This document shows, piece by piece, positions 19,970 to 63,830 of a stretch of DNA of 64,000 nt. The notes under the pieces are model-generated. The model worked only from the letters and a program-made list of their open reading frames with translations, had not been told where the DNA came from and did no database searches. The stretch's first letter is position 1, and each line of letters starts with the position of its first letter. The position numbers and the translations under genes are program-made. This stretch comes from Saccharopolyspora gloriosae (GTDB lineage: Bacteria > Actinomycetota > Actinomycetes > Mycobacteriales > Pseudonocardiaceae): assembly GCF_014203325.1 (NCBI RefSeq), contig NZ_JACHIV010000001.1, positions 5,767,501 through 5,831,500 of the forward strand. Direction: 5' to 3'.

Positions 19970-20212
19970 GGTCGGGTAGCGGAACCTCAGCGGCTTCCTC
20001 GCTGCGGGATCTTTTTCCCGAGTGGCTCCGCCACGAGGGAAAAAGCTGTCCTCGCGAGGAAGCCACTGAGAACCCGCCGGTGGGCGGCTTCTTGACGTGG
20101 GCTATTCGCTGCGCGAATACAGGCACGACCTTCGGCCGCCGGGCAGACTTCGCTTCGCTCGTCCAAGGCACGGCTTCGCCGCTAGGCACGGCCTTTGGGG
20201 GCACGGCTCGTA
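19970..20212 (+). repeat. structured 3' element, copy A
   Basis: One of seven related elements, read on the plus strand starting about 25 bp after the DUF4253 stop. A 99-nt nested hairpin (19979-20077) has outer arms joined by one G-U wobble and an inner CTTTTTCCC/GGGAAAAAG stem. It is followed by hairpin TATTCGC-TGC-GCGAATA (20103-20119) and then GGCC/GGCTTCGCC-type mini-hairpins. It is the only copy pointing rightwards, and the gene it follows also points rightwards. Confidence 0.85.
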
Positions 20213-20244
20213 GGGAGTTCGGCTGGGAGGCGTGACTCCGCTGC

Positions 20245-20541
20245 TCAGAAGGCGAGGGGGCCGCCGACGATGGTGACGGCTACTGCCATCAGGACCAGGC
20301 CGAAGCCGCCGTAGAGGATGAGGTCGACCGTGCGGGAGCGCACTGCGAGCAGGCCCACCTGGTCGCGCGTCAAGAACGCTCGTGCCGCCGCCGCTAGCAG
20401 CAGCGCCAGGCTCAGCAGCATCGAACCCTCGCGCCAGGCGTGCATCGCCACCCGCAGGAAACCGATCGCCGCGACCAGCAGCACCAGTGCGAACGGCACG
20501 TGCACCGCCCACTTCGATCGATCACCGAAGCGTTCGTTCAT
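20245..20541 (-). CDS. DUF3017 membrane protein
   Basis: 98 aa with three hydrophobic helices (WAVHVPFALVLLVAAIGFLR, MLLSLALLLAAAARAFL, LILYGGFGLVLMAVAVTIV) and the conserved LTRDQVGLLAVRSRTVD between the last two. The pattern matches DUF3017, which in actinobacteria lies beside folD, as here. Function unknown. ATG at 20541 follows GGGAGG-CCGG; a longer frame exists but lacks a ribosome site. It starts 70 bp after the folD stop and is likely in the same operon. Confidence 0.8.
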   Translation of the reverse strand: MNERFGDRSKWAVHVPFALVLLVAAIGFLRVAMHAWREGSMLLSLALLLAAAARAFLTRDQVGLLAVRSRTVDLILYGGFGLVLMAVAVTIVGGPLAF

Positions 20542-20611
20542 GCCGGCCTCCCACGCTTGCCCGAAGTGCCGGGTAATCGTAGAGCCCAGCCCGCGATGAC
20601 CGTCCGAACCT

Positions 20612-21463
20612 TCAGCCGACATGGCGCTCCGCGGCCTCCACGACGTTGGTGAGCAGCATGGCCCGGGTCATCGGCCCCACCCCGCCGGGGTTCGGCGACA
20701 AGTGCCCGGCGATCTCGGCGACCTCGGGGTGCACGTCCCCGGCGATGCCCTCGTCGGTGCGCGTGACGCCGACGTCGAGCACCGCGGCGCCGGGCTTGAC
20801 CATGTCCGGGGTGATCAGGTGCGGCCGGCCCGCGGCGGCCACCACGACGTCCGCGCGGCGCACCTCCGCGGCCAGGTCCGGAGTGCCCGTGTGGCACAGG
20901 GTCACCGTGGCGTTCTCGCTGCGCCGGGTCAGCAGCAGCCCCAGCGGGCGCCCCACGGTGATGCCGCGGCCGACGACGGCGACGTGCGCGCCGTCCAGCG
21001 CGACCTCGTGGCGCCGCAGCAGCTCCACGATGCCGCGCGGCGTGCACGGCAGCGGCGCCGGTTCGCCGAGGACCAGGCGGCCCAGGCTGATCGGGTGCAG
21101 GCCGTCGGCGTCCTTGTCCGGCGCGACCCGCTCCAGCAGCGGACCGGCGTCGAGGTGCGCGGGCAGCGGGAGCTGCACGATGTAGCCGGTGCAGGCGGGG
21201 TCGCCGTTGAGGTCGTCGAGCACCGCCTCCAGCTCGCCCTGGGTGCTCTCGGCCGGGAGGTCGCGGCGCAACGAGGCGATGCCGAGCTTCGCGCAGTCGT
21301 TGTGCTTGCCGCGCACGTACGACTGCGAGCCCGGGTCGTCACCGACCAGCACCGTCCCCAGTCCGGGAGTGACGCCGCGCTCGGCGAGCCGGGCGACGCG
21401 CGTCCGCAGCTCGTCGTAGATCGCGTTCTTGGTGGCCTTGCCGTCCAGGATCGTGGCGCTCAC
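20612..21463 (-). CDS. folD: bifunctional methylenetetrahydrofolate dehydrogenase/cyclohydrolase
   Basis: 283 aa, the normal FolD length. It interconverts 5,10-methylene-THF and 10-formyl-THF, feeding purN and purH, both present in this window. Signatures are [15 protein letters not shown] with the catalytic Lys, [35 protein letters not shown] (the NADP-binding loop in its actinobacterial form) and [11 protein letters not shown]. The GTG at 21463 gives the usual MSATILDGK start. It is followed by DUF3017. Confidence 0.96.
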
Positions 21464-21519
21464 GGTGCCAATCGTGGCAGACGTGGCCCCGGCCGGATCA
21501 CCGGCCGTCCGGCCCGTGC

Positions 21520-22488
21520 TCAGGCGCGCGCGGTGCGATCCGGGATGGAGGCGACGGCGACCGCGACGAAGGTGAGCCCGACGCCGATCACCGTGGTCAC
21601 CGGGACCGCGGTGCCGGGCGCGGGCACGAACAGGTCGAGCAGCAGCGCGCCGAGCAGCTGCCCGGCCACCATGCCCATGCTCAGCACCAGGACCCCCGTG
21701 CGGTGCACCAGCGCCGCCGCGCCACCGATCACGAAGATGCCCAGCACCCCGCCGATGTAGAGCCACGGCTGCGCGGGCAGCCCGGACGGCAGGCCGCGCG
21801 CCGCGACCTCCACCAGCCAGGCCAGCAGCAGCCCCACCGCGCCGACCCCGAAGTTGATCACCGCGGCGGCGGCAGGGGACCCCGCGGTCTGCTTCACCCG
21901 CCCGTTCACCGCCTGCTGCCACGCCACGCCGATGCCGGCCAGCGCGGGCACCAGGATCAGCCAGCTCGCGCCCGACCCGGTCAGCTCGTCCCACACGGCC
22001 ACGAGCACCGCGATCACCGCCAGCACCGCGCCCACCACGCGCGGCGAGGTCACCCGCTGCGGCCCGGCCGGGCCGAGCCCGACCCGGTCGACGACCAACC
22101 CGCTGCCGACCTGGCCCGCCACCACGGCCACCGTGAACAGCGCGACGCCCAGCGCCGCCGCCGACAGGCCCTGGCCGAACACGAGGAACCCGCCCGCGAC
22201 CCCGCCGAGGCACTGCCACCAGCGCAGCCCTCCCCCGCGCAGCGCGTCGCGCACCGCGCGCAGGCCCGCCCGCGCCACCGGCATGAACGACGTCGCGATC
22301 AGCAGCACGACGAGCCCCGAGCCGAACGAGATCAGCGCCGCCGCGAGCCCGTCGTGCAGCTGCGCGCCGAGCGCGCCGTTGAGCCGCGACTGCACCGCCA
22401 GCACCACGCCGACGACGACGGCGCCCAGCATGCCGAGGCCTCGGCTGCGCGCGGCGGAACGGGAACCGGAATCGGGTTGAGCGCTCAC
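21520..22488 (-). CDS. DMT-family transporter (YdcZ/DUF606-like)
   Basis: 322 aa, about ten hydrophobic helices in two similar halves: each half has a Q-x-x-x-N-G motif ([10 protein letters not shown] and [10 protein letters not shown]) and a later GxxLGxxxV-type helix. This internal duplication is typical of the DMT group related to YdcZ. Substrate unknown. The GTG at 22488 overlaps the stop of the upstream MFS gene by GTGA, so the two are translationally coupled. Confidence 0.75.
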
Positions 22489-23750: not shown

Positions 23751-23766
23751 CTGTGACGGCCACCGA

Positions 23767-23801: not shown

Positions 23802-23989
23802 GTCGCTCGGAGCATCCACAAGGCAGGCTTTGGAGCTCGGAACAGCCCACCCGACGATCACCGCCGAGCTCACGGCGCCGAACCATTGCACCGAACTCAC
23901 CCGGGAAGACACACCACGATCGACCCTTCGAGTAGCGTTTTCGCGGGGTGGGGTCGGTGTGCCTGGATGAGAGGGGGAGGATGTCACCC

Positions 23990-26900
23990 ATGTCGCGTCC
24001 GACAGCGATCAGTCCGGAAGAGCAGGAACAGATAGCCCGCAGGATCGGCGTCCTGCTGTTGCAGGCCGCACCTGAGGACTGGCAGCAGATCACGGTCGAG
24101 TACCGCGCCACGGGCGAGTACCAGGATCTGCTCGGGGAGGTCGCCGCCCAGGACGGGGGCACCGAACCGTGGGAGCCGCCCGAAGAACTATGGGCGATCT
24201 TCGAGCACCTCCGCGAGGGCATGTACCGGCCCGATGTGGGTACCTGGCTCAGCGCGCTCTACGTGGTGGAGCGGCCGTCGAGCTACCGCATCGACATCAA
24301 CTTCGACGCCGAGCCGCAGTGGCAGCGCCCGCTGCCGCGCGCCGCGTACGTCGACGAGCTGCGCCGCTACCCGCGCACCGACGACAACGTGCCGGACTGG
24401 ATGCGGGGGAAGCTGGACGCCGCGACCGCCCCGGCGGACCCGGCCGGTCCCGGACCGGCCCAGCAGCAGGCGCCCGCCCCCCAGGCGCCGGCCGCGCAGG
24501 CTCCGGTCGCACCGCAGCCGACGGGACAGGTGCCCGCCGCCCAGGAACGCCCCGCCCCGGAACAGGCCGGGCCCGAGCTGCCGGTGCGGGAACCGTCCCG
24601 TCCCGAGCAGCACGCCCCGGAGCAGGCTCCCGCGTTCGGCGCCGCCGCCGAGCAGGCCCGCCCCGAGCCGCCCGAAACGTCCACTTCGGACGAACCGGGC
24701 GCCGGGTTCCGCACGGCGCTGGTGTTCGACGACTTCGACGAGCAGGGGCGCCCGCTGGTGGCGACCCGCGCGCCGGTGCACCAGGACGAGGTCGGCGCGC
24801 TGCGCCACTACCTGGAGAACGCGCCGATCGTGCTCGCCTCGCGCGACAACGACGACGACCTGCTCGACCCGAACGCGCCCGCATCGGTGCCCTCCACCTG
24901 GCACACCGACGGCGTGTGGGTGTGGCCGGGCGCGGTCCCGTACTACCTGGTGCAGTACGGCGTGCCGCCGCAGCCGGAGCTCGTCGAGCACGTCCGCTCC
25001 CGCCGGTTCGCCCTCGCCGAGGTCGACGACCGCACTCGGGACGCGGCCGTGCGCGAGCTGTTCGACCAGCCGGACTTCGACCAGGCCGACGCGACCGGCC
25101 AAGCCGGCTACGACGACCAGGCCACCGGCGAGACGCCGCGCGTGGAGGAGGACTTCGCGGTGCGGCTGCCCGCGCCCGCCCAGGCGCGCGAGGACTCCCC
25201 GGCCGAGTCGTGGCAGGACGCCCCCGCCGACGCGAACGCGTTCGCGGCTCCCCGCCCCGACACCGGCTTCGCGGCGAGCACTCCGCTGCTCACCCACCGC
25301 GACGAGCTCTCCGAGCAGGCCCCGGCCGAGGCGGACCTGCCGCTGCTCACCCACGATTCGGAGCCGCTGATCGACCACGACGCGGAACGCGTCGAGCAGG
25401 CTCCGGCCGGGCTGGACCTGGGCGACGCGGACGAGGAACCCGGGTCGCGCCACGGCGTCGACGCCGACGAGGACCTCGACGAGACGCAGGCGATCCTGGC
25501 GCGGCTGCACGACCGGCTCACCGAGCTGGGCGTCGACGGCCACGAGTACCGCATCGGCAGCCACTCCGCCGACGCGCGCTGCCTGCTGCGCGACGAACCC
25601 GGCTGGGTCGTCACCGCGGGCGAGGACGACCTGCACGGCGACCTGCACTTCGAGCACGCCGATCAGGCGGCGGCGTTCCTGCTCGGCAGCCTGCTGCTGT
25701 CCAGCACGGCGCCGCTGCCCGCCGCCGAGGACCAGCGGCGGCGTTCGCTGCCGGAGGCCGCGGTGGACGCGCCGGAGGTTCCGGAACCGTCCGCGCCCGA
25801 GCCCGACGTGGCCCGCGCCGCGGAGCCGGAAGCCGAGGCCCCCGCCGCCGTCGGCGGTGCCGCGCTGGTCTCCGGTGCCGCCGCGGGATTCGCCGCCTCG
25901 TCCGACGAGCGCAGCGGTTCCGGCGGGTCCGGCGGGTTCGCCGCGTTCGGCAGCACGCCCGAATCCCCTGCCGACGGCCTCTTCAAGGACCACCGGGAGG
26001 AGCCGGACGACGCCGCGGCCAAGCCCGCCGAGTTCGAGACCGCGGGTGCCGAGTCCGGCCCGGCGGAGGACCGCTCGGCAGGCGCTCAGCGCGAAGCGGC
26101 GAACGCCGAACCGGACGCGGGGGCCGAGGCCCAGCGCGCCCCGATCGGTGACCTGCCTCGCCGCGGCAGCACCCCGCCCGAGCCGGCGCAGCGCCAGCCC
26201 GAGGCGGGCACCGGCGGGCACTTCCTGTTCACCGCGAACCAGGGACCGGCCGAGGCGGAATCCGCCGACGGCGGCGACTTCCAGACCGCCGCCGCTCCCG
26301 ACGCGGAGGCGACCCGGTTCCAGCCGCTGCCGACGGTGCAGCCCGGCTCGAACGTCAACGGCGCCGCCCCCAACGGCGCGGCCTCCAACGGCGCGGCGCC
26401 GAACGGTTTCGCCCCGACCCCGCAGGGCCCCGGTCAAGGCCAGGCGCCGCAGGGTCCGGGCGGACCGCAGGGCCCCGGCCCGCAGCAAGGCCCCGGTGGC
26501 CAGCAGGCACCGGCGAACCAGCCGTTGCCGCAGCGCGGCGGTCCGCGCCCCGAGCAGGACCCGGCCGGACGCCCGCCCGCGGGCGGCCCCGGACCGCAGG
26601 GCCCGCACGGCGGCCCGGGTGCCGCTCCGACCGGGGGCGCCGAGCGCCGTCCCGGCCCGCCCGGACCCGGCATGGCCGGTCCGCCGCGGCAGGGACCGGG
26701 CCCGCAGGGACCGCAGGGCGAGCCGCAGGGCCGCCCCGGCGGGCCGATCAAGCGCCCGCCGCAGAACGGCCCGGGTGAGCAGCAGCAGCAGCCGCACCCC
26801 CAGCAACAGCAGCAGCCGGCCGGGAACATCCAGCCGCTGCGCGGCGAACCGCCGTTGACGCTGTACCGGGACCGGCGGACCCTCGTGCTGCAGCCCGGCA

Positions 26901-27175
26901 CCGAGCTGGACCGCTTCGGCGACCCGGCGGGCAACGTCACCTACGCCGCGCACACGCCGTACAGCCAGCGTTCGCTGCCGCCGCAGTGGTCCACCCGCCA
27001 GTACGCGGCGTTCCGCGTGCAGCGGCCGGTGCAGGCGCTGCGCGGCACGGCGGTCCCGTGGTTCGAGCAGCCCGGCGGCGGCACCGCCTACGTGCTGCCC
27101 GGTTCGGTGAACGACCTCCTCGCCGACGGCACCTTGCAGGAGATCAACGACGCCCAGCGCCCACCGAACGAATAA
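23990..27175 (+). CDS. giant TNT-domain (NAD glycohydrolase-type) protein with YezG-like N-terminus
   Basis: 1061 aa, no signal peptide or membrane helix. Residues about 5-145 resemble the YezG/DUF600 immunity-type domain (EQIARRIGVLLLQAAPEDWQ, then YRIDINFDAEPQWQRPLP). Two further globular regions lie at about 240-365 and 490-575, separated by Pro/Glu/Ala-rich linkers. Residues about 770-955 are Pro/Gly/Gln-rich and disordered. Residues 956-1061 match a TNT domain: GTELDRFGDPAGN, YSQRSLPPQW, VPWFEQPGGGTAYVLPG and LLADGTLQEI. TNT domains (as in mycobacterial CpnT) cleave NAD. I use ATG 23990, 9 nt after GAGGGGGAGG. It is alone in its transcript with terminator 27191-27224. No separate immunity gene is adjacent. 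Confidence 0.8.
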   Translation: MSRPTAISPEEQEQIARRIGVLLLQAAPEDWQQITVEYRATGEYQDLLGEVAAQDGGTEPWEPPEELWAIFEHLREGMYRPDVGTWLSALYVVERPSSYRIDINFDAEPQWQRPLPRAAYVDELRRYPRTDDNVPDWMRGKLDAATAPADPAGPGPAQQQAPAPQAPAAQAPVAPQPTGQVPAAQERPAPEQAGPELPVREPSRPEQHAPEQAPAFGAAAEQARPEPPETSTSDEPGAGFRTALVFDDFDEQGRPLVATRAPVHQDEVGALRHYLENAPIVLASRDNDDDLLDPNAPASVPSTWHTDGVWVWPGAVPYYLVQYGVPPQPELVEHVRSRRFALAEVDDRTRDAAVRELFDQPDFDQADATGQAGYDDQATGETPRVEEDFAVRLPAPAQAREDSPAESWQDAPADANAFAAPRPDTGFAASTPLLTHRDELSEQAPAEADLPLLTHDSEPLIDHDAERVEQAPAGLDLGDADEEPGSRHGVDADEDLDETQAILARLHDRLTELGVDGHEYRIGSHSADARCLLRDEPGWVVTAGEDDLHGDLHFEHADQAAAFLLGSLLLSSTAPLPAAEDQRRRSLPEAAVDAPEVPEPSAPEPDVARAAEPEAEAPAAVGGAALVSGAAAGFAASSDERSGSGGSGGFAAFGSTPESPADGLFKDHREEPDDAAAKPAEFETAGAESGPAEDRSAGAQREAANAEPDAGAEAQRAPIGDLPRRGSTPPEPAQRQPEAGTGGHFLFTANQGPAEAESADGGDFQTAAAPDAEATRFQPLPTVQPGSNVNGAAPNGAASNGAAPNGFAPTPQGPGQGQAPQGPGGPQGPGPQQGPGGQQAPANQPLPQRGGPRPEQDPAGRPPAGGPGPQGPHGGPGAAPTGGAERRPGPPGPGMAGPPRQGPGPQGPQGEPQGRPGGPIKRPPQNGPGEQQQQPHPQQQQQPAGNIQPLRGEPPLTLYRDRRTLVLQPGTELDRFGDPAGNVTYAAHTPYSQRSLPPQWSTRQYAAFRVQRPVQALRGTAVPWFEQPGGGTAYVLPGSVNDLLADGTLQEINDAQRPPNE

Positions 27176-27325: not shown

Positions 27326-27637
27326 CGAAAGCCGTGCCCTAGCGGCGAAAGCCGTGCCTCAGGCGGGCGAAGCCGTGCAGTGGGCGGCGAAGCCACGCAG
27401 TGGGCGGGCGAAGCCACGCTTGCTTTGCGGCGTAGCCGTGCCTGTGGGCGGGCGAAGCCACGCCTGCTTTGCGGCGTAGCCGTGCCTGTATGTGCGAAGC
27501 ACATAGCCCACGTCAAAAAGGTGACAACCCGCGGGTTCTCAGCCGGTCTCTCGCGAGGACAGCTTTTTCCCTCGTGGCGGAGCCACTAGGGAAAAAGATC
27601 CCGCAGCGAGAGACCGGCTGAGGTTCCGCCACCCGAC
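27326..27637 (-). repeat. structured 3' element, copy B (longest mini-hairpin array)
   Basis: Read on the minus strand it begins about 20 bp after the pentapeptide gene stop. The nested hairpin is 27531-27629 with a perfectly paired GCCGGTCTCTCGC/GCGAGAGACCGGC outer stem. Then come TATGTGC-GAA-GCACATA (27489-27505) and an array of about eight GGC-GAA-GCC type mini-hairpins joined by GTGCCT- or CGC-type linkers. It is the longest array of the seven copies. Confidence 0.85.
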
Positions 27638-27658
27638 CCCCAAAGCAAAACGACCGGC

Positions 27659-30504: not shown

Positions 30505-30781
30505 CCCCGCCCCGAAAGCACCACCCCTGTGTACAACTCCACGATCAAGGCCCCCGAAACACCCCCGCCCACCCGGCCACACCTTGTTCAACCACCCGCA
30601 ATTTCGCGAGAATTTGCGAGGCAGCACCGACCGGCTCACCCGGAACTTCCACCCGAAACCGCAGATCAGTGGGCTATTGAGTGATCTTCGGCGGCGGTGG
30701 GGCGTTTCAATTTCTCGCGAAATTGCTGGAGTTGTCCACAGGGGCGTGAGGTGTCCACAGGGCGTGGGGTCACGGGCGGGG
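30505..30781. promoter_or_regulatory. DnaA-box-like cluster with two 18-bp pseudo-palindromes
   Basis: Between the convergent M20 and dnaE2 genes lie TTGTACACA (30536-30528, minus), TTGTCCACA (30732-30740), which is the actinobacterial DnaA-box consensus, and GTGTCCACA (30751-30759). CAATTTCGCGAGAATTTG (30599-30616) and an inverted copy differing by one base (30725-30708) flank the middle. The patch is AT-rich for this DNA. A DnaA-titration or protein-binding locus is possible but not shown. Confidence 0.4.
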
Positions 30782-37563: not shown

Positions 37564-37796
37564 CAGCGGCGAAGCCGTGCCTGGCGGCCGAAGGCCGTGC
37601 CTTGGGCGGCGAAGCCCGCCTGCCTTGCGGCCGAAGGCCGTGCCTGTATTCGCGCAGCGAATAGCCCACGTCGAAAAGCCCTCACCCGCGGGTTCTCAGC
37701 TTCCTTCTCGCGAGGACAGCTTTTTCCCTCGTGGCGGAGCCACTTGGGAAAAAGATCCCGCAGCGAGAAGGACGCTGAGGTTCCGCCACCCGACCA
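37564..37796 (-). repeat. structured 3' element, copy C
   Basis: Read on the minus strand it begins about 30 bp after the purH stop. Nested hairpin 37688-37786 (one U-C mismatch in the outer stem), then TATTCGC-GCA-GCGAATA (37647-37663), then about four mini-hairpins including GGCC-GAA-GGCC. A true U-tailed terminator follows at 37531-37498. Confidence 0.85.
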
Positions 37797-37825
37797 CAGA
37801 GCAAAACGAGCCGTGAAACCCCAGC

Positions 37826-45317: not shown

Positions 45318-45712
45318 TCGACTCTCCTGCGACGTCGGTGTCGGACTCGGCGACGATAGCGACCTGCGAGGACCGCCGGTGCGCCGCACCCGGTGAACTG
45401 GCTCACCTCATTGGCCCGATCGCCGCAGGTGAATGCATCCAGACCGGCTATTTCACCGAGTTGAAACCGCTGGATGCGGCGCGTAAGTGACGAACGGAAC
45501 ACCTCTTCAGGACCCGTCAAGGGGACCCAGAACACAATTTCCCCGGTTTTTCCGGAGCAGTGAGGTTCCGTCGGAGCACGCCGAACCGACCGGTTCGTCT
45601 CCGCCGCCGCCCACGCGGTCCGCGACGGCGGCCCCGGACCGCGACCGCGAGCCTCACCGCCCGCCTTTGATCTTGGCTTTCCGGCCGAGCAATGTTCTTG
45701 ATCCGTGTCTTG
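45318..45712. other. sucC upstream region, no gene seen
   Basis: Holds the sucCD promoter, not assigned. GCATCCAG (45435-45442) and CTGGATGC (45470-45477) form a perfect 8-bp inverted repeat with a 27-nt loop. Two T-rich stretches near 45536-45550 are visible. No reading frame here looks real. Confidence 0.35.
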
Positions 45713-45873
45713 TCAGCGGCGAAGCCGCTGAGCAGCGACCAGCTTGAGCAACCGGCACCGCAGCGGGTTCTCAGCGGTTTCCTCGCGAGGACAGCTTTTT
45801 CGCTCGTGGCGGAGCCACTCGGCAAAAAGATCCCGCAGCGAGGAAACCGCTGAGGTTCCGCCACCCGACCCAC
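45713..45873 (-). repeat. structured 3' element, copy D (short, partly degenerate)
   Basis: Read on the minus strand it begins about 23 bp after the stop of the large membrane protein gene. The nested hairpin 45763-45861 keeps a perfect outer stem GCGGTTTCCTCGC/GCGAGGAAACCGC, but the inner T/A stem has two changes that break pairing. The TATxxGC hairpin and its CCCACGTC flank are missing, and only one mini-hairpin (CAGCGGC-GAA-GCCGCTG, extended) remains. Confidence 0.75.
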
Positions 45874-45895
45874 TACCCAGGCCAGGGACCAAGGG

Positions 45896-50286: not shown

Positions 50287-50571
50287 TACGGCGAAGCCGT
50301 GCAATGGGCGGGCGAAGCCACGCCTGCCTCGCGGCCGAAAGGCCGTGCCTAGCGGCGAAGCCGTGCTCTGGGCGGCGAAGCAAGCCTGCCTTGCGGCGTA
50401 GCCGTGCCTGTATGTGCGAAGCACATAGCCCACGTCAAAAAGGTGACGACCCGCGGGTTCTCAGTGGCTTCCTCGCGAGGACAGCTTTTTTCCTCGTGGC
50501 GGAGCCACTTGGAAAAAAGATCCCGCAGCGAGGAAGCCACTGAGGTTCCGCCACCCGACCACCAAAGCAAA
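50287..50571 (-). repeat. structured 3' element, copy E
   Basis: Read on the minus strand it begins about 16 bp after the pcrA stop. Nested hairpin 50453-50551 has a perfect outer stem GTGGCTTCCTCGC/GCGAGGAAGCCAC. The inner stem is TTTTTTCC/GGAAAAAA, a paired C-to-T and G-to-A change compared with the other copies. Then TATGTGC-GAA-GCACATA and five to six mini-hairpins. Confidence 0.85.
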
Positions 50572-50586
50572 ACGAGCCCAGAGAAC

Positions 50587-53040
50587 TCAAAGCTTAGTAA
50601 GCGGAACGCTGCCGATTAGCATGAGACGGACCGTGCCCGAGCTGCCGAAGTCGATGGTGGCCGTGGCGCGCGGACCTTCGCCTTCGGTGGCCAGCACCGT
50701 GCCCAGGCCGTACTTGTCGTGCGTCACCCGGTCCCCGGCGTCGAGCTTGATCGACACCGTGTTCTTCCAGCCGGGCGCTCCGGTGCTGCGCAGCCCGCGC
50801 GCGGCCACGGAGGCCTGCGCCGAGTCCGAACCGCCCCGGTCGAAGCCGCTGCGCCCGCCCCACGTGCTGCGCACTTGCGGCGCGGAGCGTTCCGGTTCGA
50901 TGCGGCGCCATTCGAGCAGTTCTTCGGGGATCTCGCCGAGGAACCGGGAGGCGGGGTTCGTCATGGGCTGGCCCCACGCGGAACGCATCAGCGCCCGGGA
51001 CAGGTACAGCCGCTGCTGGGCGCGGGTGATGCCGACGTAGGCGAGCCTGCGTTCTTCCGCGAGCTCCGCGGGGTCGCTCAGCGCCCGCATGTGCGGGAAG
51101 ATCCCGTCTTCCCAGCCGGTGGAGAACACCACCGGGAATTCGAGGCCCTTCGCGGTGTGCAGCGTCATGAGGGTGACCACGCCGTCGCCGGATTCGGGCA
51201 GCGAGTCGGCGTCGGCGACGAGCGACACGCGTTCCAGGAACGCGGACAGCGAGTCGTCGGCGGGCAGGCCCAGCGCCTGTTCCTCGGTGTCCTCCACGGC
51301 CGGTTCCGGCGGCGCGACCACGGCTTCCGCGGAGGGGTCGGTGGTCTCGGCGTTCACTTCGCCCGCTTGCGGCGCGCGGGCTTCGGTGAATTCCCTGGCG
51401 ACCGTGACGAGTTCCGTCAGGTTCTCCACCCGCGTCGCGTCCTGCGGGTCGTCGCTGGCTTCCAGCTCACCGCGGTATCCGGTGCGTTCCAGCACGGCGT
51501 CGAGGACTTCGGCCACGTCGGATTCGCGGGCCACTTCGCCGAGTTCGTCGAGCAGCGCCACGAATCCGGCGATCTGCTTCTGGGCGCGCGTGGCCAGCGC
51601 CGGGATCCGGTTCTGCGACGCCAGCCGCAGCGCGGCGGCGAACGAGATCCGCTGCTGGTCGGCGTGCGCGGCGACGACGGCCTCCGCCCGGTCCCCGATG
51701 CCGCGCTTGGGCACGTTGAGGATCCGCCGCAGGCTCACCGTGTCGTCCGGGTTGTCCAGCACCCGCAGGTAGGCCAGCGCGTCCCGGACTTCGCGGCGCT
51801 CGTAGAACCGCACGCCGCCCACCACGCGGTAGGGCAGGCCGAGGCGGATGAAGACCTCTTCGAAGACCCGGGATTGGTTGTTGGTCCGGTAGAACACGGC
51901 GATGTCGTTGAAGGTGACTTCGCCGTCGTCGACGAGCCGGTCGATCTCGCCCGCGACGAACGCGGCCTCGTCGTGCTCGTTGTCGGCGACGTAGCCGACG
52001 ATCGGCGCACCGTCGCCGGCGTCGCTCCACAGCCGCTTGTCCCGGCGGTTCGGGTTGCGGCGGATCACCGAGTTGGCCGCGGTCAGGATCGTCTGCGTGG
52101 AGCGGTAGTTCTGCTCCAGCAGGATCGTGCGCGCCTGCGGGTAGTCCCGTTCGAACTCTTCGATGTTGCGGATCGTCGCGCCGCGGAACGCGTAGATCGA
52201 CTGGTCGGCGTCGCCGACGACGCACAGCTCGGCGGGCGGGGTGCCGAGCTCGGTGTCCGCGGTGCCGACGAGCTCGCGGACCAGGGCGTACTGCGCGTGG
52301 TTGGTGTCCTGGTACTCGTCGACCATGACGTGCCGGAAGCGGCGCCGGTAGTGCTCGGCGACGTCCGGGTGGTCCCGCAGCAGGTCGACGGTGCGCATGA
52401 TGAGGTCGTCGAAGTCCATCGCCTGCGAATCGACGAGCCTGCGCTGGTAGGCGGCGTAGACCTGCGCGACCTTGCGCTCCATGTCGTTGCCCGCGCGCTC
52501 GGCCGCTTCTTCCGGCGTGACGAGCTCGTTCTTCAGGTTCGACACCTGGATCGAGAGGGTCCGCGCGGGGTAGCGCTTCGAGTCGAGCTCCAGTTCCCGG
52601 CCGATCATCGTGATCAGCCGCTTGGAGTCGTCGGAGTCGTAGATGGAGAAGTTCGACGACAGCCCCAGCGTCTTCGCCTCGCGGCGCAGCACCCGCACGC
52701 ACATCGAGTGGAACGTGGAGACCCACATCGCGTTCGCCCGGCGCCCCACCAGGTCGCCGACGCGTTCCTTCATCTCGGCGGCGGCCTTGTTGGTGAAGGT
52801 GATCGCCATGATCTGGCCGGGGTGGACGCCTTGCGCCAGCAGGTGGGCGATGCGGCTCGTGAGCACCCGGGTCTTGCCGGAACCGGCGCCCGCGACGATC
52901 AGCAGCGGCGAACCGGAGTGCACCACGGCGTCGCGCTGCTGCGAGTTCAGGCCCGCGAGCAGGGCGTCCGGCGCGTGCCCCGCCGGGCCGGAACCGGACT
53001 CGGAGGAACCGTCGTGCGGAAGATCGAAGAGGGTGCTCAT
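50587..53040 (-). CDS. pcrA: UvrD/PcrA superfamily 1 DNA helicase
   Basis: 817 aa. Motifs in order: NSQQRDAVVHSG (Q motif), IVAGAGSGKTRVL (Walker A), ITFTNKAAAEMKERV, VMVDEYQDTNHAQY (DExx), VVGDADQSIYAFRGA, LEQNYRST, TLMTLHTAKGLEFPVVF and YVGITRAQQRLYL. A Glu-rich insert lies near 540-590. The C-terminal tail ends with a Tudor-like RNA-polymerase-binding region (GDRVTHDKYGLGTVLATEGE) typical of PcrA. It acts in replication and repair by 3'-5' unwinding. ATG at 53040. Confidence 0.95.
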   Translation of the reverse strand: MSTLFDLPHDGSSESGSGPAGHAPDALLAGLNSQQRDAVVHSGSPLLIVAGAGSGKTRVLTSRIAHLLAQGVHPGQIMAITFTNKAAAEMKERVGDLVGRRANAMWVSTFHSMCVRVLRREAKTLGLSSNFSIYDSDDSKRLITMIGRELELDSKRYPARTLSIQVSNLKNELVTPEEAAERAGNDMERKVAQVYAAYQRRLVDSQAMDFDDLIMRTVDLLRDHPDVAEHYRRRFRHVMVDEYQDTNHAQYALVRELVGTADTELGTPPAELCVVGDADQSIYAFRGATIRNIEEFERDYPQARTILLEQNYRSTQTILTAANSVIRRNPNRRDKRLWSDAGDGAPIVGYVADNEHDEAAFVAGEIDRLVDDGEVTFNDIAVFYRTNNQSRVFEEVFIRLGLPYRVVGGVRFYERREVRDALAYLRVLDNPDDTVSLRRILNVPKRGIGDRAEAVVAAHADQQRISFAAALRLASQNRIPALATRAQKQIAGFVALLDELGEVARESDVAEVLDAVLERTGYRGELEASDDPQDATRVENLTELVTVAREFTEARAPQAGEVNAETTDPSAEAVVAPPEPAVEDTEEQALGLPADDSLSAFLERVSLVADADSLPESGDGVVTLMTLHTAKGLEFPVVFSTGWEDGIFPHMRALSDPAELAEERRLAYVGITRAQQRLYLSRALMRSAWGQPMTNPASRFLGEIPEELLEWRRIEPERSAPQVRSTWGGRSGFDRGGSDSAQASVAARGLRSTGAPGWKNTVSIKLDAGDRVTHDKYGLGTVLATEGEGPRATATIDFGSSGTVRLMLIGSVPLTKL

Positions 53041-53258: not shown

Positions 53259-53273
53259 GCGCACACCACTACG

Positions 53274-53662: not shown

Positions 53663-53720
53663 ACCGACCGCGAAGTCGCACACGACCTGACGTGCGAATT
53701 CAGGCTTTGAGCCTGCCCCG

Positions 53721-53980
53721 TGCCGTAGGCCGCGAAGCAAACCTGCCTCGCGGTCGAAGGCCGTGCCTCGCGGCGAAGCCGTGCAGTAGGCGGCGAAGCG
53801 AGCCTGCTTTGCGGCGAAGCCGTGCCTGTATGTGCGAAGCACATAGCCCACGTCCAAAAGCCGCCCACCAGCGGGTTCTCAGCGTTCTTCTCGCGAGGAC
53901 AGCTTTTTCCCTCGTGGCGGAGCCACTAGGGAAAAAGATCCCGCAGCGAGAAGGACGCTGAGGTTCCGCCACCCGACCAC
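53721..53980 (-). repeat. structured 3' element, copy F
   Basis: Read on the minus strand it begins about 31 bp after the stop of the SDR gene. Nested hairpin 53871-53969 with one G-U wobble in the outer stem and a perfect CTTTTTCCCT/AGGGAAAAAG inner stem, then TATGTGC-GAA-GCACATA, then about five mini-hairpins. It lies between two convergent genes. Confidence 0.85.
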
Positions 53981-54010
53981 CCAAGCAAAAAGAGCCGTGA
54001 AACCCCCACC

Positions 54011-54802
54011 TCAGTGAGCAGTCCAGCCGCCGTCCATGGGGAAGGAGGAACCGGTGACCGAGGCGGTGTTGGGTCCGCACAGCCAGTAGATGAGGTCTGC
54101 GACCTCGTCGGGTTCCACGAGGCGTTTGACGGGGGTCCGGGCCAGCAGGACGTCTTCGACCACTTGCTCTTCCGGGACCCGGTGCAGTTCGGCCTGCTCG
54201 GCCACTTGGCGCTCGACCAGCGGGGTGCGTACGAAGCCGGGGCAGATGCAGTTGGAGGTGACTCCGTACCCGGCCGCTTCGACGGCGATGGTCTTGGACA
54301 GGCCTTCCAGCCCGTGCTTGGCGGCCACGTAGGCGCTCTTGTACGGCGAGGCGCGCAGGCCGTGCACGGAGGAGATGTTGACGATGCGGCCCCAGCCGCG
54401 TTCGTACATCCCGGGCAGGGCCGCTCTGGCCAGGCGGAACGGGGTTTCCAACATCACCTTCACCAGTTTGGTGAAGGTCTCCGGCGGGAACTGGTGCACG
54501 GGTGCGACGTGTTGCAGGCCGGCGTTGTTGACGACGATGTCGGCGTGCTCGCCCAGCGGCGCCGCCGCGTCCGGGTCTTCCAGATCGACGATGCGGACTT
54601 CGGCGCCGATCTCTTCGGCGATCAGCTGCACGGCTTCGGCTTCGCGGTCGACGACGATGACGGTCGCGCCGCCTGCGGCGAGGCGGCGGGCGGCGGCGGT
54701 GCCGATGCCGCTGGCGGCGCCGGTGACGACCGCGCGCTTGCCGGCGAGGGAGTACGGGTCCGGGAGGCCAGGAGACGGGGAACCAGCCGGTCGATCACTC
54801 AT
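54011..54802 (-). CDS. 3-hydroxybutyrate dehydrogenase-like SDR
   Basis: 263 aa. Classical short-chain dehydrogenase: VVTGAASGIGTAAARRLAAG (NAD-binding), NNAG, and the catalytic Ser-Tyr-Lys in ISSVHGLRASPYKSAYVAAK. NNAGLQHVAPVHQFPPE and GFVRTPLVERQVAEQAE are typical of 3-hydroxybutyrate dehydrogenases, which oxidise 3-hydroxybutyrate to acetoacetate. The first about 15 residues are a Pro/Ser-rich tail. ATG at 54802. Confidence 0.85.
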   Translation of the reverse strand: MSDRPAGSPSPGLPDPYSLAGKRAVVTGAASGIGTAAARRLAAGGATVIVVDREAEAVQLIAEEIGAEVRIVDLEDPDAAAPLGEHADIVVNNAGLQHVAPVHQFPPETFTKLVKVMLETPFRLARAALPGMYERGWGRIVNISSVHGLRASPYKSAYVAAKHGLEGLSKTIAVEAAGYGVTSNCICPGFVRTPLVERQVAEQAELHRVPEEQVVEDVLLARTPVKRLVEPDEVADLIYWLCGPNTASVTGSSFPMDGGWTAH

Positions 54803-58293: not shown

Positions 58294-59760
58294 GTGAGCG
58301 ACGAAGGTCGCCTGGTCGCCGGACGCTACCGAGTGCAGCGACGCATCGGCAGTGGCGCGATGGGCGTGGTGTGGGAATGCATTGACGAACGCCTGCATCG
58401 CACTGTCGCGGTCAAGCAGTTGTTGCTGCAGCCCGGATTGGACCCGGGTGAGGCCGAGGAAGCGCGGCAGCGGGCAATGCGGGAAGGCCGCATCGCGGCG
58501 CGCCTGCAGCACCAGCACGCGATCTCGGTCTACGACGTAGCCGAGGACGAAGGCCAGCCAGTGCTGGTCATGGAGTACCTGCCCTCCACCAGCCTGGCGG
58601 CGATGATGTCCGACCACGGGCCGTTGCCGCCTCGGGAGGTGGCTCGAATCGGTGCTCAGGCGGCAGCCGCGCTCGGTGCCGCGCACGCGGCGGGAGTGGT
58701 GCACCGCGACATCAAGCCGGGCAACATCCTGCTCGGCGACAACGGCACGGTGAAGATCACCGACTTCGGCATCTCACGCGCCCAGGGCGACGTGCAGGTG
58801 ACGAAGACGGGGATGCTGGCGGGCACGCCCGCCTACCTGTCGCCGGACGTCGCGATGGGCCAGGAGCCCTCCGGTGCCTCCGACGTGTTCTCGCTGGGCG
58901 CGACGCTCTACGCCGCGATCGAGGGCAGGCCGCCGTTCGGCTTGAACGAGAACACGCTGGCGCTGCTGCACTCGGTGGCCGCGGGCCGCATCGAACCGCC
59001 GCAGCAGTCCGGCGCGATGGCCCAGCCGCTGATGGCGATGATGCAGGTGCGCGTCGAGGACCGGCCGGACATGGCTCAGGTCCGGGAGATGCTGCTGGCG
59101 GTCGCCGACGGCAACGCGGTCACCTCGGTGCCCACGATGGCCGCGCCGATCCCGCCCGCGATCAGCCCGGAGCACGGCGGCAGCAGGCCGGACCTGCAGC
59201 CGACCAGCGTCGTCGGGCACGACTACGGCAACGGCACCGCCTACTACGACGAGGATCCGTACGGCGCGCAGGACTCCAATCCGCGCACCGCGTACCTGGG
59301 TGGTGCGGATCCGCGCAGCGACGTGGCGCTGGAGGACCGGCCGAGGCGCAGCAAGCGCCCGGTGGTGATCTCCGGCATCGCGCTGGCCGCGGCGGCCGTG
59401 GTCGCGGTGCTGGTGACGTCGGCGTTCCTCAGCGGCGGCAACGACCCGGGGCCGACCGGCAACCAGACCGGGACCAGCGAGCAACCGCAGATCCCGGTTC
59501 CGCCGCCGCAGACCACGGCGTCCTCGGAGAGCCAGACCTACGAGGAGGAGACCACCTCGGAGGAGACCTCCAGCCCCACGACGTCCTCGCAGCCGTCGTC
59601 GCAGCCGTCGACGACGGAGCAGCCGACCTCGACGCAGTCGGAGCCGACCGAGACGTCCGACGACAGCGACGACCAGCCGACCTCCACTCAGGAGACCGGC
59701 GCGAGCGAGACGAACTCGCCGCAATCGGGCAACGTCACCGCGTACCGGCTTCCGGGCTGA
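58294..59760 (+). CDS. receptor-type Ser/Thr protein kinase
   Basis: 488 aa. Complete Hanks-type kinase domain at residues 8-270: GSGAMGVVWECID (Gly loop), TVAVKQLLL (ATP Lys), VVHRDIKPGNILL (catalytic loop), ITDFGISRA and GTPAYLSPDVA. A juxtamembrane linker precedes one helix (VVISGIALAAAAVVAVLVTS) at about 353-375. The external tail is Ser/Thr/Gln/Glu-rich with no PASTA or other domain. GTG at 58294 follows GGGGAG. Confidence 0.92.
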   Translation: MSDEGRLVAGRYRVQRRIGSGAMGVVWECIDERLHRTVAVKQLLLQPGLDPGEAEEARQRAMREGRIAARLQHQHAISVYDVAEDEGQPVLVMEYLPSTSLAAMMSDHGPLPPREVARIGAQAAAALGAAHAAGVVHRDIKPGNILLGDNGTVKITDFGISRAQGDVQVTKTGMLAGTPAYLSPDVAMGQEPSGASDVFSLGATLYAAIEGRPPFGLNENTLALLHSVAAGRIEPPQQSGAMAQPLMAMMQVRVEDRPDMAQVREMLLAVADGNAVTSVPTMAAPIPPAISPEHGGSRPDLQPTSVVGHDYGNGTAYYDEDPYGAQDSNPRTAYLGGADPRSDVALEDRPRRSKRPVVISGIALAAAAVVAVLVTSAFLSGGNDPGPTGNQTGTSEQPQIPVPPPQTTASSESQTYEEETTSEETSSPTTSSQPSSQPSTTEQPTSTQSEPTETSDDSDDQPTSTQETGASETNSPQSGNVTAYRLPG

Positions 59761-59966: not shown

Positions 59967-61529
59967 GTGAGCGCCGAGGGCCGTTTGATCACGGGCCGTT
60001 ACCGGTTGGAAAAGCGCATCGGCAGCGGCGCCATGGGAATCGTGTGGCGCGCGGTCGACGAGCGGCTGCACCGCACGGTTGCGGTCAAGCAGCTGCTGCT
60101 CCAGCCCGGTTACACCGATGAGGAGACCGAGGAGGCGCGCCAGCGCTCGATGCGCGAGGGCCGCATCGCCGCCCGGTTGCAGCACCAGAACGCCATCGTG
60201 GTCTTCGACGTGGCCGAGGACGAGGGCCAGCCGGTGCTCGTCATGGAGTACCTGCCGTCGCAGAGCCTGGCGACCGTGCTCAGCGAGCAGGGCGTGCTGC
60301 CCCCGCAGTCCGTGGCGCGGATCGGTTCGCAGGTCGCGGGCGCGCTCGCGGCGGCGCACATGGCGGGCATCGTGCACCGCGACCTCAAGCCGGGCAACAT
60401 CCTGCTCGGCGACAACGGCATCGCGAAGATCACCGACTTCGGCATCTCCCGCGCCATAGGCGATGTCGCGGTGACCAAGAGCGGCATCCTCGCCGGCACC
60501 CCCGCCTACCTGTCCCCCGAGGTGGCGCTGGGCCGCGACCCGGCTCCCGCCTCCGACGTGTTCTCGCTGGGCGCCACGCTGTACGCGGCGGTGGAGGGCG
60601 AGCCCCCGTTCGGCACGGACGAGAACGCGATCAGCCTGCTGCACCGGGTGGCGCGCGGCCAGGTGGAACCGCCGCGCCAGGCGGGGCCGCTGGCCCCGGC
60701 GCTGATGCAGCTGCTGCTGCCGGACCCGGTGGACCGGCCGACGATGGCGCAGACCAGGAGCATGCTGCTCGCGGTGGCGGAAGGACGACCGCTGCCCGGC
60801 GGGTCGACGCCGTCCTCCGGCTGGCAGCGCCCGGCCGCGGCGCCGCAGCAGGGCAGGCAGCGGGAGGCCCCGGCGACCCGGGTGGGCGCCCCGGTGCCCG
60901 CGGGCTCCGGCAATCCCCCGACCCAGGTGGGTCAGCCCGCGGTGGCCGAACCGGCCGGTGGCGGTTCCTCGTCGCGCAAGGCGGTGCTGCTGTGGGCGGC
61001 GGCGCTGCTGGTCGCGGTGCTGGTGGGCGTGCTGACCGCGAGCGCGTTCGGCTCCGGTTCGGATCAGCCCAAGCAGTCGCAGCCGACTCCGATCGCCTCT
61101 CCCCCCTCTCCCGAGCCGGTGACGACGACGGCGCCGCCGACGACCTCCGCGCCGACGTCCTCGGCTTCGCCGACGACGAGCAGCACGTCCAGCTCGGCCA
61201 CCTCCAGCAAGGAGGACGACGACGAGCAGCCGTCGAAGGACGAGATCGAGGACGTCGTGAAGACGTACTACTCCTCGGTGCCGGACGACCTGGACAAGTC
61301 CTGGTCGCTGCTGGGGCCGGGGTTGCAGTCGGTCGGCAAGGACACCTACAAGGCGTTCTGGCAGTCGATCGACGACGTGAAGATCGTGTCCGGCCCCAAG
61401 TCCGCGGGGTCGAAGGTGCTGGTGGTCCTGCAGTTCGAGAAGGACGGCAAGACCAGCAAGGAGCGCCACGTGCTCGGCATGGTCGCCCGGGACGGCAAAG
61501 CGCTGATCAACAGCGATTCCCGGATGTGA
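59967..61529 (+). CDS. receptor-type Ser/Thr protein kinase with extracellular NTF2-like domain
   Basis: 520 aa. Paralogue of the preceding kinase: GSGAMGIVWRAVD, TVAVKQLLL, IVHRDLKPGNILL, ITDFGISRA and GTPAYLSPEVA, with high identity across the domain. A Pro/Gln-rich linker and one helix (AVLLWAAALLVAVLVGVLTA) at about 338-362 follow. Outside, a Ser/Thr linker leads to about 95 residues (DEIEDVVKTYYSSVPDDLDK, then FWQSIDDVKIVSGPK) that look like an NTF2-like sensor domain. GTG at 59967 follows AGGAGAGAC. Confidence 0.92.
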   Translation: MSAEGRLITGRYRLEKRIGSGAMGIVWRAVDERLHRTVAVKQLLLQPGYTDEETEEARQRSMREGRIAARLQHQNAIVVFDVAEDEGQPVLVMEYLPSQSLATVLSEQGVLPPQSVARIGSQVAGALAAAHMAGIVHRDLKPGNILLGDNGIAKITDFGISRAIGDVAVTKSGILAGTPAYLSPEVALGRDPAPASDVFSLGATLYAAVEGEPPFGTDENAISLLHRVARGQVEPPRQAGPLAPALMQLLLPDPVDRPTMAQTRSMLLAVAEGRPLPGGSTPSSGWQRPAAAPQQGRQREAPATRVGAPVPAGSGNPPTQVGQPAVAEPAGGGSSSRKAVLLWAAALLVAVLVGVLTASAFGSGSDQPKQSQPTPIASPPSPEPVTTTAPPTTSAPTSSASPTTSSTSSSATSSKEDDDEQPSKDEIEDVVKTYYSSVPDDLDKSWSLLGPGLQSVGKDTYKAFWQSIDDVKIVSGPKSAGSKVLVVLQFEKDGKTSKERHVLGMVARDGKALINSDSRM

Positions 61530-61531
61530 GC

Positions 61532-62428: not shown

Positions 62429-62472
62429 GGACCCGACACTACAGCAGATCTGAAGTGTTCGTTCATTTTATT

Positions 62473-62489
62473 TCGATTGTGCTAATCGA
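62473..62489. promoter_or_regulatory. LysR-type operator palindrome
   Basis: TCGATT-GTGCT-AATCGA, perfect 6-bp arms, contains an ATT-N5-AAT core of the sort bound by LysR proteins. It lies 45 bp from the LysR start and 95 bp from the EamA start, in an AT-rich patch. Confidence 0.6.
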
Positions 62490-62583
62490 TCGTCCGCCGG
62501 ATCGTGGTGTTCGCGGCCGCACGCTCACACCACTGCTCCGCCGACCGTCCGCGGGACGGGGCGGACCCACGAAGGGACGAACG

Positions 62584-63537
62584 ATGAACCATCCGGCGAG
62601 CTACCTGCGGGTCGGCGCGTTGGCGCTGCTGTGGGGAGCCAGTTTCCTGCTGATCAAGCTCGCGCTGACCGCGCTGTCACCGGTGCAGGTCGCGTTCACC
62701 CGCATCGCGCTCGGCGCGGCGGTGCTGGTGGTGCTGTGCGCGCTGCGCGGCATCCGGTTGCGCGGCGATCGGCGGCTGTGGGCGCACGTCGCGGTGGCCG
62801 GGTTCTTCGCGAGCGCGCTGCCGTGGGTGCTGTTCAGCATGGCCGAGCGCACCGTGGATTCCGGGCTGGCCGGGGTGCTGAACGCGACGACGCCGCTGTG
62901 GACGATCCTGTTCGGCTTCCTGGCGGGCACGCAGCGCGACGTGCCGCCGCGGATGCTGGCGGGCCTGGCCATCGGGTTCGGCGGCGTGCTGCTGATCATG
63001 GCGCCCTGGGACGCCACCGCGAGCGGCATCGGGCTGCTGGCCTGCCTCGGCGCGACGGCCAGCTACGGCATCGCCTACGTGCACATCGGCCGGAACCTGA
63101 CCGCGTCGCGCGACGGCGGACCCGCGCCCGTGCCGCTGGCGACGGCGGGCATGCAGCTCGTCGCCGCCACCGGCATCGCGGCGTTCGCGCTGCCGCTGGA
63201 CGGTCTCCCGCCGGTGCGCTTCGACCTGGTCGCGCTGCTGGCGGTCGCGGTGCTCGGCGTGTTCGGCACCGGAGTGGGTTTCGCGCTGAACTACCGCCTG
63301 ATCGCCGACGAGGGCCCCACCGCGGCGGCGACCGTCACCTACCTGATGCCGATCGTCTCGGTGCTGCTGGGCGCCCTGGTCCTCGGCGAGCAGATCGGCC
63401 CCCGGGTCGTGCTGGGCATCGCCCTGGTCCTCGCAGGCGTCGCCCTCACCCGCCGCACCAACCGCCCCAGCCCCCGCCGCCTGCCCCCCGCCGCCCGGGT
63501 CTTCACGGACCTCACCACCAACCACCCCATGAAGTGA
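62584..63537 (+). CDS. EamA/DMT-family transporter
   Basis: 317 aa, ten membrane helices in two EamA repeats (LALLWGASFLLIKLALTALS and ATASYGIAYVHIGRNL; later VTYLMPIVSVLLGALVLGEQ). These export or import small metabolites such as amino acids or their analogues. ATG at 62584 follows GAAGGGACGA. Likely controlled by the divergent LysR protein. Convergent with the LuxR-type gene, with element copy G in between. Confidence 0.87.
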   Translation: MNHPASYLRVGALALLWGASFLLIKLALTALSPVQVAFTRIALGAAVLVVLCALRGIRLRGDRRLWAHVAVAGFFASALPWVLFSMAERTVDSGLAGVLNATTPLWTILFGFLAGTQRDVPPRMLAGLAIGFGGVLLIMAPWDATASGIGLLACLGATASYGIAYVHIGRNLTASRDGGPAPVPLATAGMQLVAATGIAAFALPLDGLPPVRFDLVALLAVAVLGVFGTGVGFALNYRLIADEGPTAAATVTYLMPIVSVLLGALVLGEQIGPRVVLGIALVLAGVALTRRTNRPSPRRLPPAARVFTDLTTNHPMK

Positions 63538-63591
63538 CCCCGAACCACCCACGCCGAAGGCCGCGCAGCGAGCGGACAAACCCCGCCCACC

Positions 63592-63830
63592 CCGCGGCAG
63601 AAGGCCGTGCCTAGCGGCGAAGCCGTGCAGTCGGGCTGCGAAGCAAGCCTGCCTTGCGGCCGAAGGCCGTGCCTGTATTCGCGAAGCGAATAGCCCACGT
63701 CCAAAAGCCGACCACCCGCGGGTTCTCAGCTTCCTTCTCGCGAGGACAGCTTTTTCCCTCGTGGCGGAGCCACTCGGGAAAAAGATCCCGCAGCGAGAAG
63801 GACGCTGAGGTTCCGCCACCCGACCACAGA
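63592..63830 (-). repeat. structured 3' element, copy G
   Basis: Read on the minus strand it begins about 48 bp after the stop of the LuxR-type gene. Nested hairpin 63718-63816 with the same arms as copy C (one mismatch), then TATTCGC-GAA-GCGAATA, then three to four mini-hairpins including GGCC-GAA-GGCC. Confidence 0.85.

What the first reader, a model, noticed from the sequence alone, without database searches (positions are those of the whole stretch)
19970..63830. Seven-copy dispersed structured element, one about every 9 kb
Copies at 19970, 27326, 37564, 45713, 50287, 53721 and 63592 share a modular layout: (1) a 99-nt nested hairpin bounded by GCGG and CCGC, (2) a TATxxGC hairpin followed by CCCACGTC, (3) a variable array of mini-hairpins with GAA loops (GGC-GAA-GCC or GGCC-GAA-GGCC) joined by GTGCCT-type linkers. 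All are intergenic. I do not recognise a named family. If the density holds genome-wide there would be hundreds of copies. Alternatives are a REP/BIME-like element moved by a RAYT-type transposase, or a regulatory RNA family.
Basis: seen in the sequence. Interest (0 to 1): 0.88.

Follow-up and report, generated by a model that had tools for sequence, protein, structure and literature searches.

The report
Mobile hairpin elements behind stop codons
Hundreds of copies of a folded, mobile-looking DNA hairpin sit just behind gene stop codons in a soil-type actinobacterium and its relatives, mostly pointing the same way as gene and replication fork, and neither their mover nor their job is known.

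Summary
All seven copies are real, intergenic and related. They belong to a family of about 345 copies in this 6.83-Mb genome, found in 64 of 249 genomes of the same bacterial family. A limited search of the class found it in no other family (2 of 394 genomes matched, both of this family).

The unit is a ~100-nt hairpin with conserved internal mismatches and covarying stems, followed by a small hairpin or an array of mini-hairpins.

(1) In gene sense the core motif starts about 41 nt after a stop codon (174 of 214 have a same-sense gene upstream, 143 of those at 30-55 nt).
(2) Orientation follows the replication fork. In convergent pairs it lies behind the fork-codirectional gene in 59 of 78.

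Orthologous sites are gained, lost or occupied from the other side between species, so it looks mobile. The usual REP mover (Y1/RAYT) is absent from this genome and from 13 of 20 element-bearing relatives; this genome has no reverse transcriptase. No Rfam match.

Best reading: a RAYT-independent, REP-like mobile 3'-end hairpin, probably serving as a transcript end. Mover and function are unproven.

The parts
19945..20215 (+). Copy 1 (gene sense +): leader, core hairpin 19979-20078, TAT hairpin, short array; follows the stop at 19944
27326..27658 (-). Copy 2 (gene sense -): core hairpin 27531-27630, TAT hairpin 27489-27505, CCCACGTC 27507-27514, array upstream of these; follows the stop of the minus-strand gene whose low end is 27659
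37564..37825 (-). Copy 3: array, TAT hairpin, core 37688-37787; follows the stop of the minus-strand gene 37826-39391 (AICARFT/IMPCHase family)
45650..45895 (-). Copy 4: core 45763-45862 with the single small hairpin near 45714-45730 instead of TAT hairpin plus array; the stretch 45650-45895 is replaced by about 32 nt in relative G001
50287..50586 (-). Copy 5: array, TAT hairpin, core 50453-50552; follows the stop of the UvrD-type helicase gene 50587-53040; absent in G003 (16-nt spacer)
53718..54010 (-). Copy 6: array, TAT hairpin, core 53871-53970; follows the stop of the SDR gene 54011-54802; empty in G003-G005, on the other side in G001
63592..63850 (-). Copy 7: array, TAT hairpin, core 63718-63817; the gene on its right is cut by the window end, so the stop-codon rule was not testable; approximate right end

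Best explanation
A non-autonomous, palindromic mobile DNA element of the REP/MITE kind, about 110-300 nt, confined as far as searched to one actinobacterial family (named hosts are Pseudonocardiaceae). It multiplies by copying into the spacer just behind stop codons, in gene sense, and its folded form is what is preserved. Shown: copy number, covarying stems with conserved mismatches, the ~41-nt distance from the stop codon, gain/loss at orthologous sites, and orientation with the replication fork. Inferred: (a) movement goes through a single-stranded, folded DNA form acted on by an unidentified enzyme that is neither Y1/RAYT nor a reverse transcriptase in this genome; (b) the copy is tolerated or kept because its sense transcript supplies the strong hairpin that ends or protects the upstream gene's mRNA, taking the native terminator's place; (c) fork orientation arises because the antisense strand folds better, so orientations that expose that strand as lagging-strand template are lost.
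For: 345 copies, 0 reversed-pattern controls in this genome. On 46 diverse copies 95.6% of cells pair, 18 of 31 pairs show two-sided changes, and none of 500 shuffles reaches the covariation score. Stop-to-core distance median 41, IQR 38-45, for 174 of 214 elements. None of 116 inside gene calls. All 7 orthologous spacers with an element in at least one of the compared species differ in presence, or in side, among own and G001-G005. At the copy-6 site the relatives without the element (G003; G004 and G005, which are alike there) carry a short perfect hairpin, read by eye. Strong native hairpins behind stops in this genome start at a median of 25 nt. Convergent pairs: element behind the codirectional gene in 14/15, 15/18 and 30/45. 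Antisense strand of the core more stable in 44 of 46 (DNA parameters) and 40 of 46 (RNA parameters). In one low-copy genus a copy directly behind gatB is present in 5 of 7 genomes looked at, with paired stem changes between them.
Against: No mover was found: among the 25 largest neighbour clusters shown, none is a small dedicated partner. No target-site duplication was identifiable. Termination was not tested; P3-type copies show no clear U-tract. Strong native hairpins exceed letter shuffles only about twofold (49 against 27 of 120). Two-sided changes can also arise from arm-to-arm correction in DNA palindromes. The inner stem shows no strand preference and one conserved G-U pair favours the gene-sense strand; for the small hairpin the strand difference in energy is slight (DNA parameters: 10 of 25 favour antisense, 4 of 25 gene sense). 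34 of 214 elements have an opposite-sense gene upstream.
Confidence: 0.5

Rival explanations
1. A REPIN-type element moved by a RAYT (Y1 HUH transposase).
For: Dispersed, extragenic, palindromic, hundreds of copies. Some relatives have Y1_Tnp genes (7 of 20). Y1 elements favour the lagging-strand template (PMC6006769, passages read).
Against: No Y1_Tnp in this genome nor in G001-G003, G018, G068, G079, G172, G197, G208, G219, G229, G236, G244. If the better-folding antisense strand were the active one, IS608-like insertion predicts the opposite fork orientation from that seen (inference).
Confidence: 0.12
2. A cis-acting structured RNA in 3' UTRs (terminator, stabiliser or protein-binding site) spread by recombination rather than by a dedicated mover.
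For: Fixed sense position behind stop codons; very stable hairpin; conserved internal-loop sequences across genera; gatB copy present in several species.
Against: The more stable fold is on the strand antisense to the gene. Mini-hairpin triloops are mostly GNA on that strand, a known feature of stable DNA hairpins. Fork orientation holds even in convergent pairs, which RNA alone does not explain.
Confidence: 0.25
3. A remnant of group II (class C) intron-like retrotransposition, which also targets the place behind terminators with a strand bias.
For: Position behind genes and strand bias resemble those reported for class C introns (PMC8919778, passages read).
Against: No RVT_1 gene in this genome, G002 or G018; 2 in G017. 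No Rfam hit at gathering threshold apart from one tRNA in the window. That paper places class C introns on the lagging strand by its own definition, whereas these elements are codirectional in sense.
Confidence: 0.03
4. Orientation and position reflect an active targeting step: single-stranded element DNA is joined at the replication fork where the gene-sense strand is exposed, as in recombineering-like incorporation into the nascent lagging strand.
For: The better-folding strand has the sense of the nascent lagging strand in most copies; bias is strongest in G017 (23 of 24).
Against: No enzyme known; differential loss of the unstable orientation explains the same bias more simply.
Confidence: 0.1

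Closest known systems
REP/BIME elements and REPINs with RAYT transposases
   Same: Hundreds of short palindromic intergenic copies, non-autonomous, structure conserved, turnover between species
   Different: No Y1_Tnp in this genome; larger two-part hairpin with conserved internal mismatches and hypervariable covarying stems; narrow distance from stop codon; fork orientation
Bacterial MITEs
   Same: Small, non-coding, palindromic, mobile-looking
   Different: No target-site duplication identified; pairing between the two ends no better than shuffled partners; no recurrent partner transposase beside copies
Group II class C introns
   Same: Reported to lie just behind terminators with strand bias (PMC8919778, passages only)
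   Different: No reverse transcriptase in this genome; far shorter; no intron-family match in Rfam; strand reported there is the lagging one by that paper's definition
Integron attC sites (recalled, not tested by any search)
   Same: Folded hairpin just behind a stop codon in fixed orientation, with the bottom strand as the folded one
   Different: Flanking genes are ordinary and syntenic with or without the element, so no gene cassettes; on reading the core, AAC appears on both arms rather than as inverted AAC/GTT boxes
Extraordinarily stable DNA mini-hairpins with GNA loops
   Same: C-GNA-G loops with free N in the small hairpins; GNA DNA mini-hairpins are described in work cited by PMC6479982 (passages read)
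   Different: Here they are a genomic repeat module, in arrays in this species and close relatives

Membership tests
REPIN/RAYT | Many short palindromic extragenic copies | tested here: met
   345 pattern hits; 0 of 116 inside gene calls
REPIN/RAYT | A RAYT (Y1_Tnp) gene in the same genome | tested here: not met
   0 in own genome; 7 of 20 element-bearing relatives have a Y1_Tnp match
REPIN/RAYT | Copies flanking the RAYT gene | not tested
   In the 7 relatives with Y1_Tnp the surroundings were not fetched
MITE | Terminal inverted repeats | tested here: not met
   Longest complementary run between the two ends equals shuffled partners in four groups; tails were picked by a small-hairpin pattern, which in G000 also took in array copies, and exact ends are not known
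MITE | Target-site duplication | tested here: inconclusive
   Few empty sites; spacers too diverged to define ends
Mobile element in general | Presence/absence at orthologous sites | tested here: met
   7 of 7 spacers of the window with an element in at least one species differ among own and G001-G005; G004/G005 were comparable at only 2 of them, and a strict pattern may miss diverged copies
Rfam families | Score above a family threshold | tested here: not met
   Only a tRNA in the window; copy 5 at E up to 1 gave only mir-2331, E 0.45, far below threshold
Group II intron / retroelement | Reverse transcriptase available | tested here: not met
   0 in G000, G002, G018; 2 in G017
Intrinsic terminator | Stable hairpin shortly behind the stop codon | tested here: met
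Intrinsic terminator | Measured transcript 3' ends at the element | not testable with these tools
   No RNA data held

The most novel reading that the evidence does not exclude
A new class of replication-coupled mobile element: a DNA hairpin recognised as folded single-stranded DNA on the strand antisense to the gene, placed behind stop codons by a mover that is not a Y1/HUH RAYT, and used by its hosts as portable gene ends.
Probability: 0.25. Interest if true: 0.88.

Novelty: new variant of a known kind. Interest (0 to 1): 0.72.

Why it matters
If right, many gene ends in a bacterial family have been rewritten by a repeat whose mover is unknown. The narrow stop-codon distance and the fork orientation make the insertion mechanism directly testable. 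It would also offer a clean case to separate DNA-level from RNA-level selection on hairpins, and may account for transcript ends in antibiotic-producing genera such as Saccharopolyspora and Amycolatopsis.

Tried and rejected
Outer closing stem (CCTGTC/GACAGG) joining both ends of the element: rejected, observed pairing equals shuffled partners. Flanking GYGGTSC direct repeats as target-site duplication: within G000 the two sides are not correlated (44 GTC/GTC, 13 GTC/TGC, 7 TGC/GTC, 1 TGC/TGC; 25 of 90 rows with an untyped side left out), so the repeat looks lineage-level. Regulon: genes in front of copies are unrelated (20 of the 23 G017 genes listed: 10 window proteins, some of them neighbours on the other side). 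High expression as cause of fork bias: not measured; the G017 genes are mostly accessory metabolism by Pfam name. Partner gene: of the 25 neighbour clusters shown (four or more members), the largest is acyl-CoA dehydrogenase (one member checked), the others I named by eye; one 4-member cluster in G018 and named genomes is a DDE transposase of the IS4/5 type (one member checked), which may be a chance neighbour. Strand-specific hypermutation around copies: the averaged profile showed G/T skew only downstream, which may be arrays or old copies; not pursued. Plasmid and phage collections: no match. Literature: no description found in searches (listings; passages of PMC3610266, PMC8919778, PMC6006769, PMC6479982 and PMC3116915). 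Subscription papers are not held, so this is not proof of novelty. PMC3610266 reports 190 putative intergenic ncRNAs in S. erythraea; whether any overlaps this element was not checked.
Full report
WHAT WAS CHECKED. The seven places were read and aligned. All seven share a 100-nt core that is almost invariant except for a covarying stem; in seven sequences alone, 8 of 39 predicted pairs show changes on both sides. The core folds far better than shuffles (z -7.8 on both strands of copy 3, -10.3 for copy 5). Six of seven carry the TAT hairpin, CCCACGTC and an array; copy 4 (45763) carries instead one small hairpin. Rfam has nothing at its thresholds except a tRNA elsewhere in the window, and a permissive scan of copy 5 gave only noise.

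THE GENOME AND ITS RELATIVES. The window lies in a single-contig 6.83-Mb genome. A covariance model from the seven copies gave 150 hits, the number scored being 150. A core pattern with up to 3 mismatches gave 269 hits, and a pattern of the most conserved arms with up to 2 mismatches gave 345, with 0 reversed-pattern controls in this genome. Of 249 genomes of the same family, this one included, 64 have at least one match (16 of 46 genera by the tool's tally); the reversed control gave 2 hits in all, so a single hit in a genome may be chance. In 394 genomes of the class, a second model from 46 diverse copies matched only G000 and G050, both of this family; that search used stricter filters, scored only 9 candidates per genome, and listed only 22 of the 394 genomes, so weak or diverged copies elsewhere are not excluded. 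In one search, 10 of 31 genomes (this one included) matched, one of them (G028, another family, one hit at E 1.5e-4) doubtful.

ANATOMY. In gene sense: stop codon, about 40 nt ending in GYGGTSCGGGTRGC, then GCGGAACCTCAG - variable stem - GCTSCGGGATC - variable inner hairpin - GCTGTCCTCGC - variable stem - CTGAGAACCCGC, then GGYGGTSC..., then a small hairpin or an array. Elements outside the CM searches were found by a pattern of four conserved motifs, so diverged copies are left out; the pattern fixes stem length but not pairing. From 69 diverse copies (60 listed) I aligned 46 (two of them extra window copies). On these, 95.6% of cells pair against 79.5% after shuffling. 18 of 31 pairs show two-sided change, and the covariation score of 0.401 is not reached in 500 shuffles nor by any slid version. 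Intermediate one-sided changes are rare, so arm-to-arm correction in DNA may contribute besides selection; but the mismatched motifs between the stems are conserved, which correction would erase (inference). Array tails were seen in 40 of 90 copies of this genome, in NFXS83 (8 elements in 7 named loci, and L031) and in G002, and not in the G010, G017, G018 or other named copies typed.

RULE 1, BEHIND STOP CODONS. Genes were called by my own codon-usage script. Of 116 elements, 112 have a neighbour on the core side; in 95 of these it is in the same sense, and none of the 116 lies inside a gene call. On the larger set, 174 of 214 have a same-sense gene upstream, 34 an opposite one, 6 none. Distance from stop to the core motif GGAACC has median 41 and IQR 38-45, and 143 of the 174 are at 30-55 nt. 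The 34 opposite cases have median 93.5 nt. Copies were sampled from best matches and dense stretches, not at random. Strong native hairpins behind stops without the element (49 of 120 tested, 27 in letter shuffles) start at median 25 nt, so the element sits near the place where terminators sit.

RULE 2, WITH THE REPLICATION FORK. dnaA places the origin at 6.47 Mb here and near position 1 in G017 and G018. Orientation by half-chromosome was 87 of the 101 listed (of 110) in G018 and 35 of the 37 listed (of 46) in G017. For this genome it was 97 of 150 before the origin was known and 104 of 150 at the best two breakpoints, which fall next to dnaA. Gene strand bias in the same stretches is 58%, 58% and 53%. 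In convergent pairs, where one gene of each kind is present, the element is behind the codirectional gene in 14 of 15 (G017), 15 of 18 (G018) and 30 of 45 (own), together 59 of 78, p 6e-6 (152 of the 214 elements could be placed). So the bias is not just gene strand bias. It is weakest in the window's own genome (p 0.036 for 30 of 45). The genes concerned that I scanned are ordinary.

MOBILITY. In the window's spacers compared with G001-G005, all 7 spacers with an element in at least one species differ between species. The copy-6 site is empty in G003, G004 and G005, which carry short perfect hairpins there (read by eye; G004 and G005 are alike); it is filled behind one gene in own and G002, and behind the opposite gene in G001. 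The copy-1 site is filled behind opposite genes in own against G001-G003; the copy-2, copy-3 and copy-5 sites lack the pattern in G003; the copy-4 site has it in own only; one spacer is filled only in G002 and G003. Some comparisons were missing or rearranged, and copy 7 was not compared. No target duplication could be read. Against this turnover, in one low-copy genus (g46) 5 of 7 genomes searched (G083, G110, G130, G161, G175) carry a copy directly behind gatB, with paired stem changes visible between them (GatB by Pfam; L173 and L265 are the same sequence), which suggests it can be retained.

WHICH STRAND FOLDS. The strand antisense to the gene is the more stable for the core in 44 of 46 (DNA parameters) and 40 of 46 (RNA parameters); for 25 distinct small hairpins it is 10 against 4 and 9 against 3, the rest equal. 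In the variable outer stem, non-Watson-Crick pairs are G-T on that strand more often than on the other (46 to 15 without position 3, 84 to 19 with it, 119 distinct stems); in the inner stem the two are equal, 19 to 17, and one conserved G-U pair favours the gene-sense strand. Of 163 non-array elements with enough sequence, 123 have a perfect hairpin of 6 bp or more behind the core and 105 of those have triloops; 101 of the 105 are GNA on the antisense strand, with N = A 48, C 22, G 25, T 6. In 49 array copies 205 of 258 triloops are GNA, against 31 of 462 in coding controls. Related copies are not independent. GNA loops make very stable DNA mini-hairpins (PMC6479982, passages read, citing earlier work I did not read). 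This points to folded single-stranded DNA, but does not prove it.

WHAT MOVES IT. No Y1_Tnp in this genome or in 13 of 20 element-bearing relatives, though 7 have one; no reverse transcriptase in own, G002 or G018, two in G017; no recurrent small partner gene among the neighbour clusters shown. The REPIN model needs a RAYT (PMC3116915, passages read). So the family works like REP/BIME elements but fails the test for RAYT-REPINs in this genome.

CONCLUSION. I hold that this is a RAYT-independent, REP-like mobile hairpin that settles behind stop codons, oriented with gene and fork, probably tolerated because it can end or protect the upstream transcript. Copy number, structure, position, orientation and turnover are shown; mover, single-stranded intermediate and transcript-end role are inferred.

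Noticed in passing
window 23990-27175 (+): Large protein whose C-terminus matches Pfam TNT (PF14021); element copy 2 lies in the spacer behind it, but follows the convergent neighbour.
   Followed up: no
window 58450-58749 and 60123-60422: 79% identical direct repeat of 300 nt inside two neighbouring genes, probably a gene duplication.
   Followed up: no
window 30595-30729: Unrelated intergenic inverted repeat (35-nt arms, 65 nt apart) in a spacer that carries the element in G002 and G003 but not here.
   Followed up: partly
L243 about 5172-5341 (G002): In G002 the copy-5 array has grown into a regular tandem array of roughly 38-nt two-hairpin units (overlapping matches).
   Followed up: no
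G000, 200-400 nt downstream of cores in gene sense: G/T-rich strand skew (GC skew about +0.13, AT skew about -0.17) against about 0 at control stops.
   Followed up: partly
L265 (same as L173), L266, L267, L269, L277: A copy behind gatB in 5 of 7 genomes searched of one low-copy genus, with paired stem changes, possibly domesticated.
   Followed up: partly
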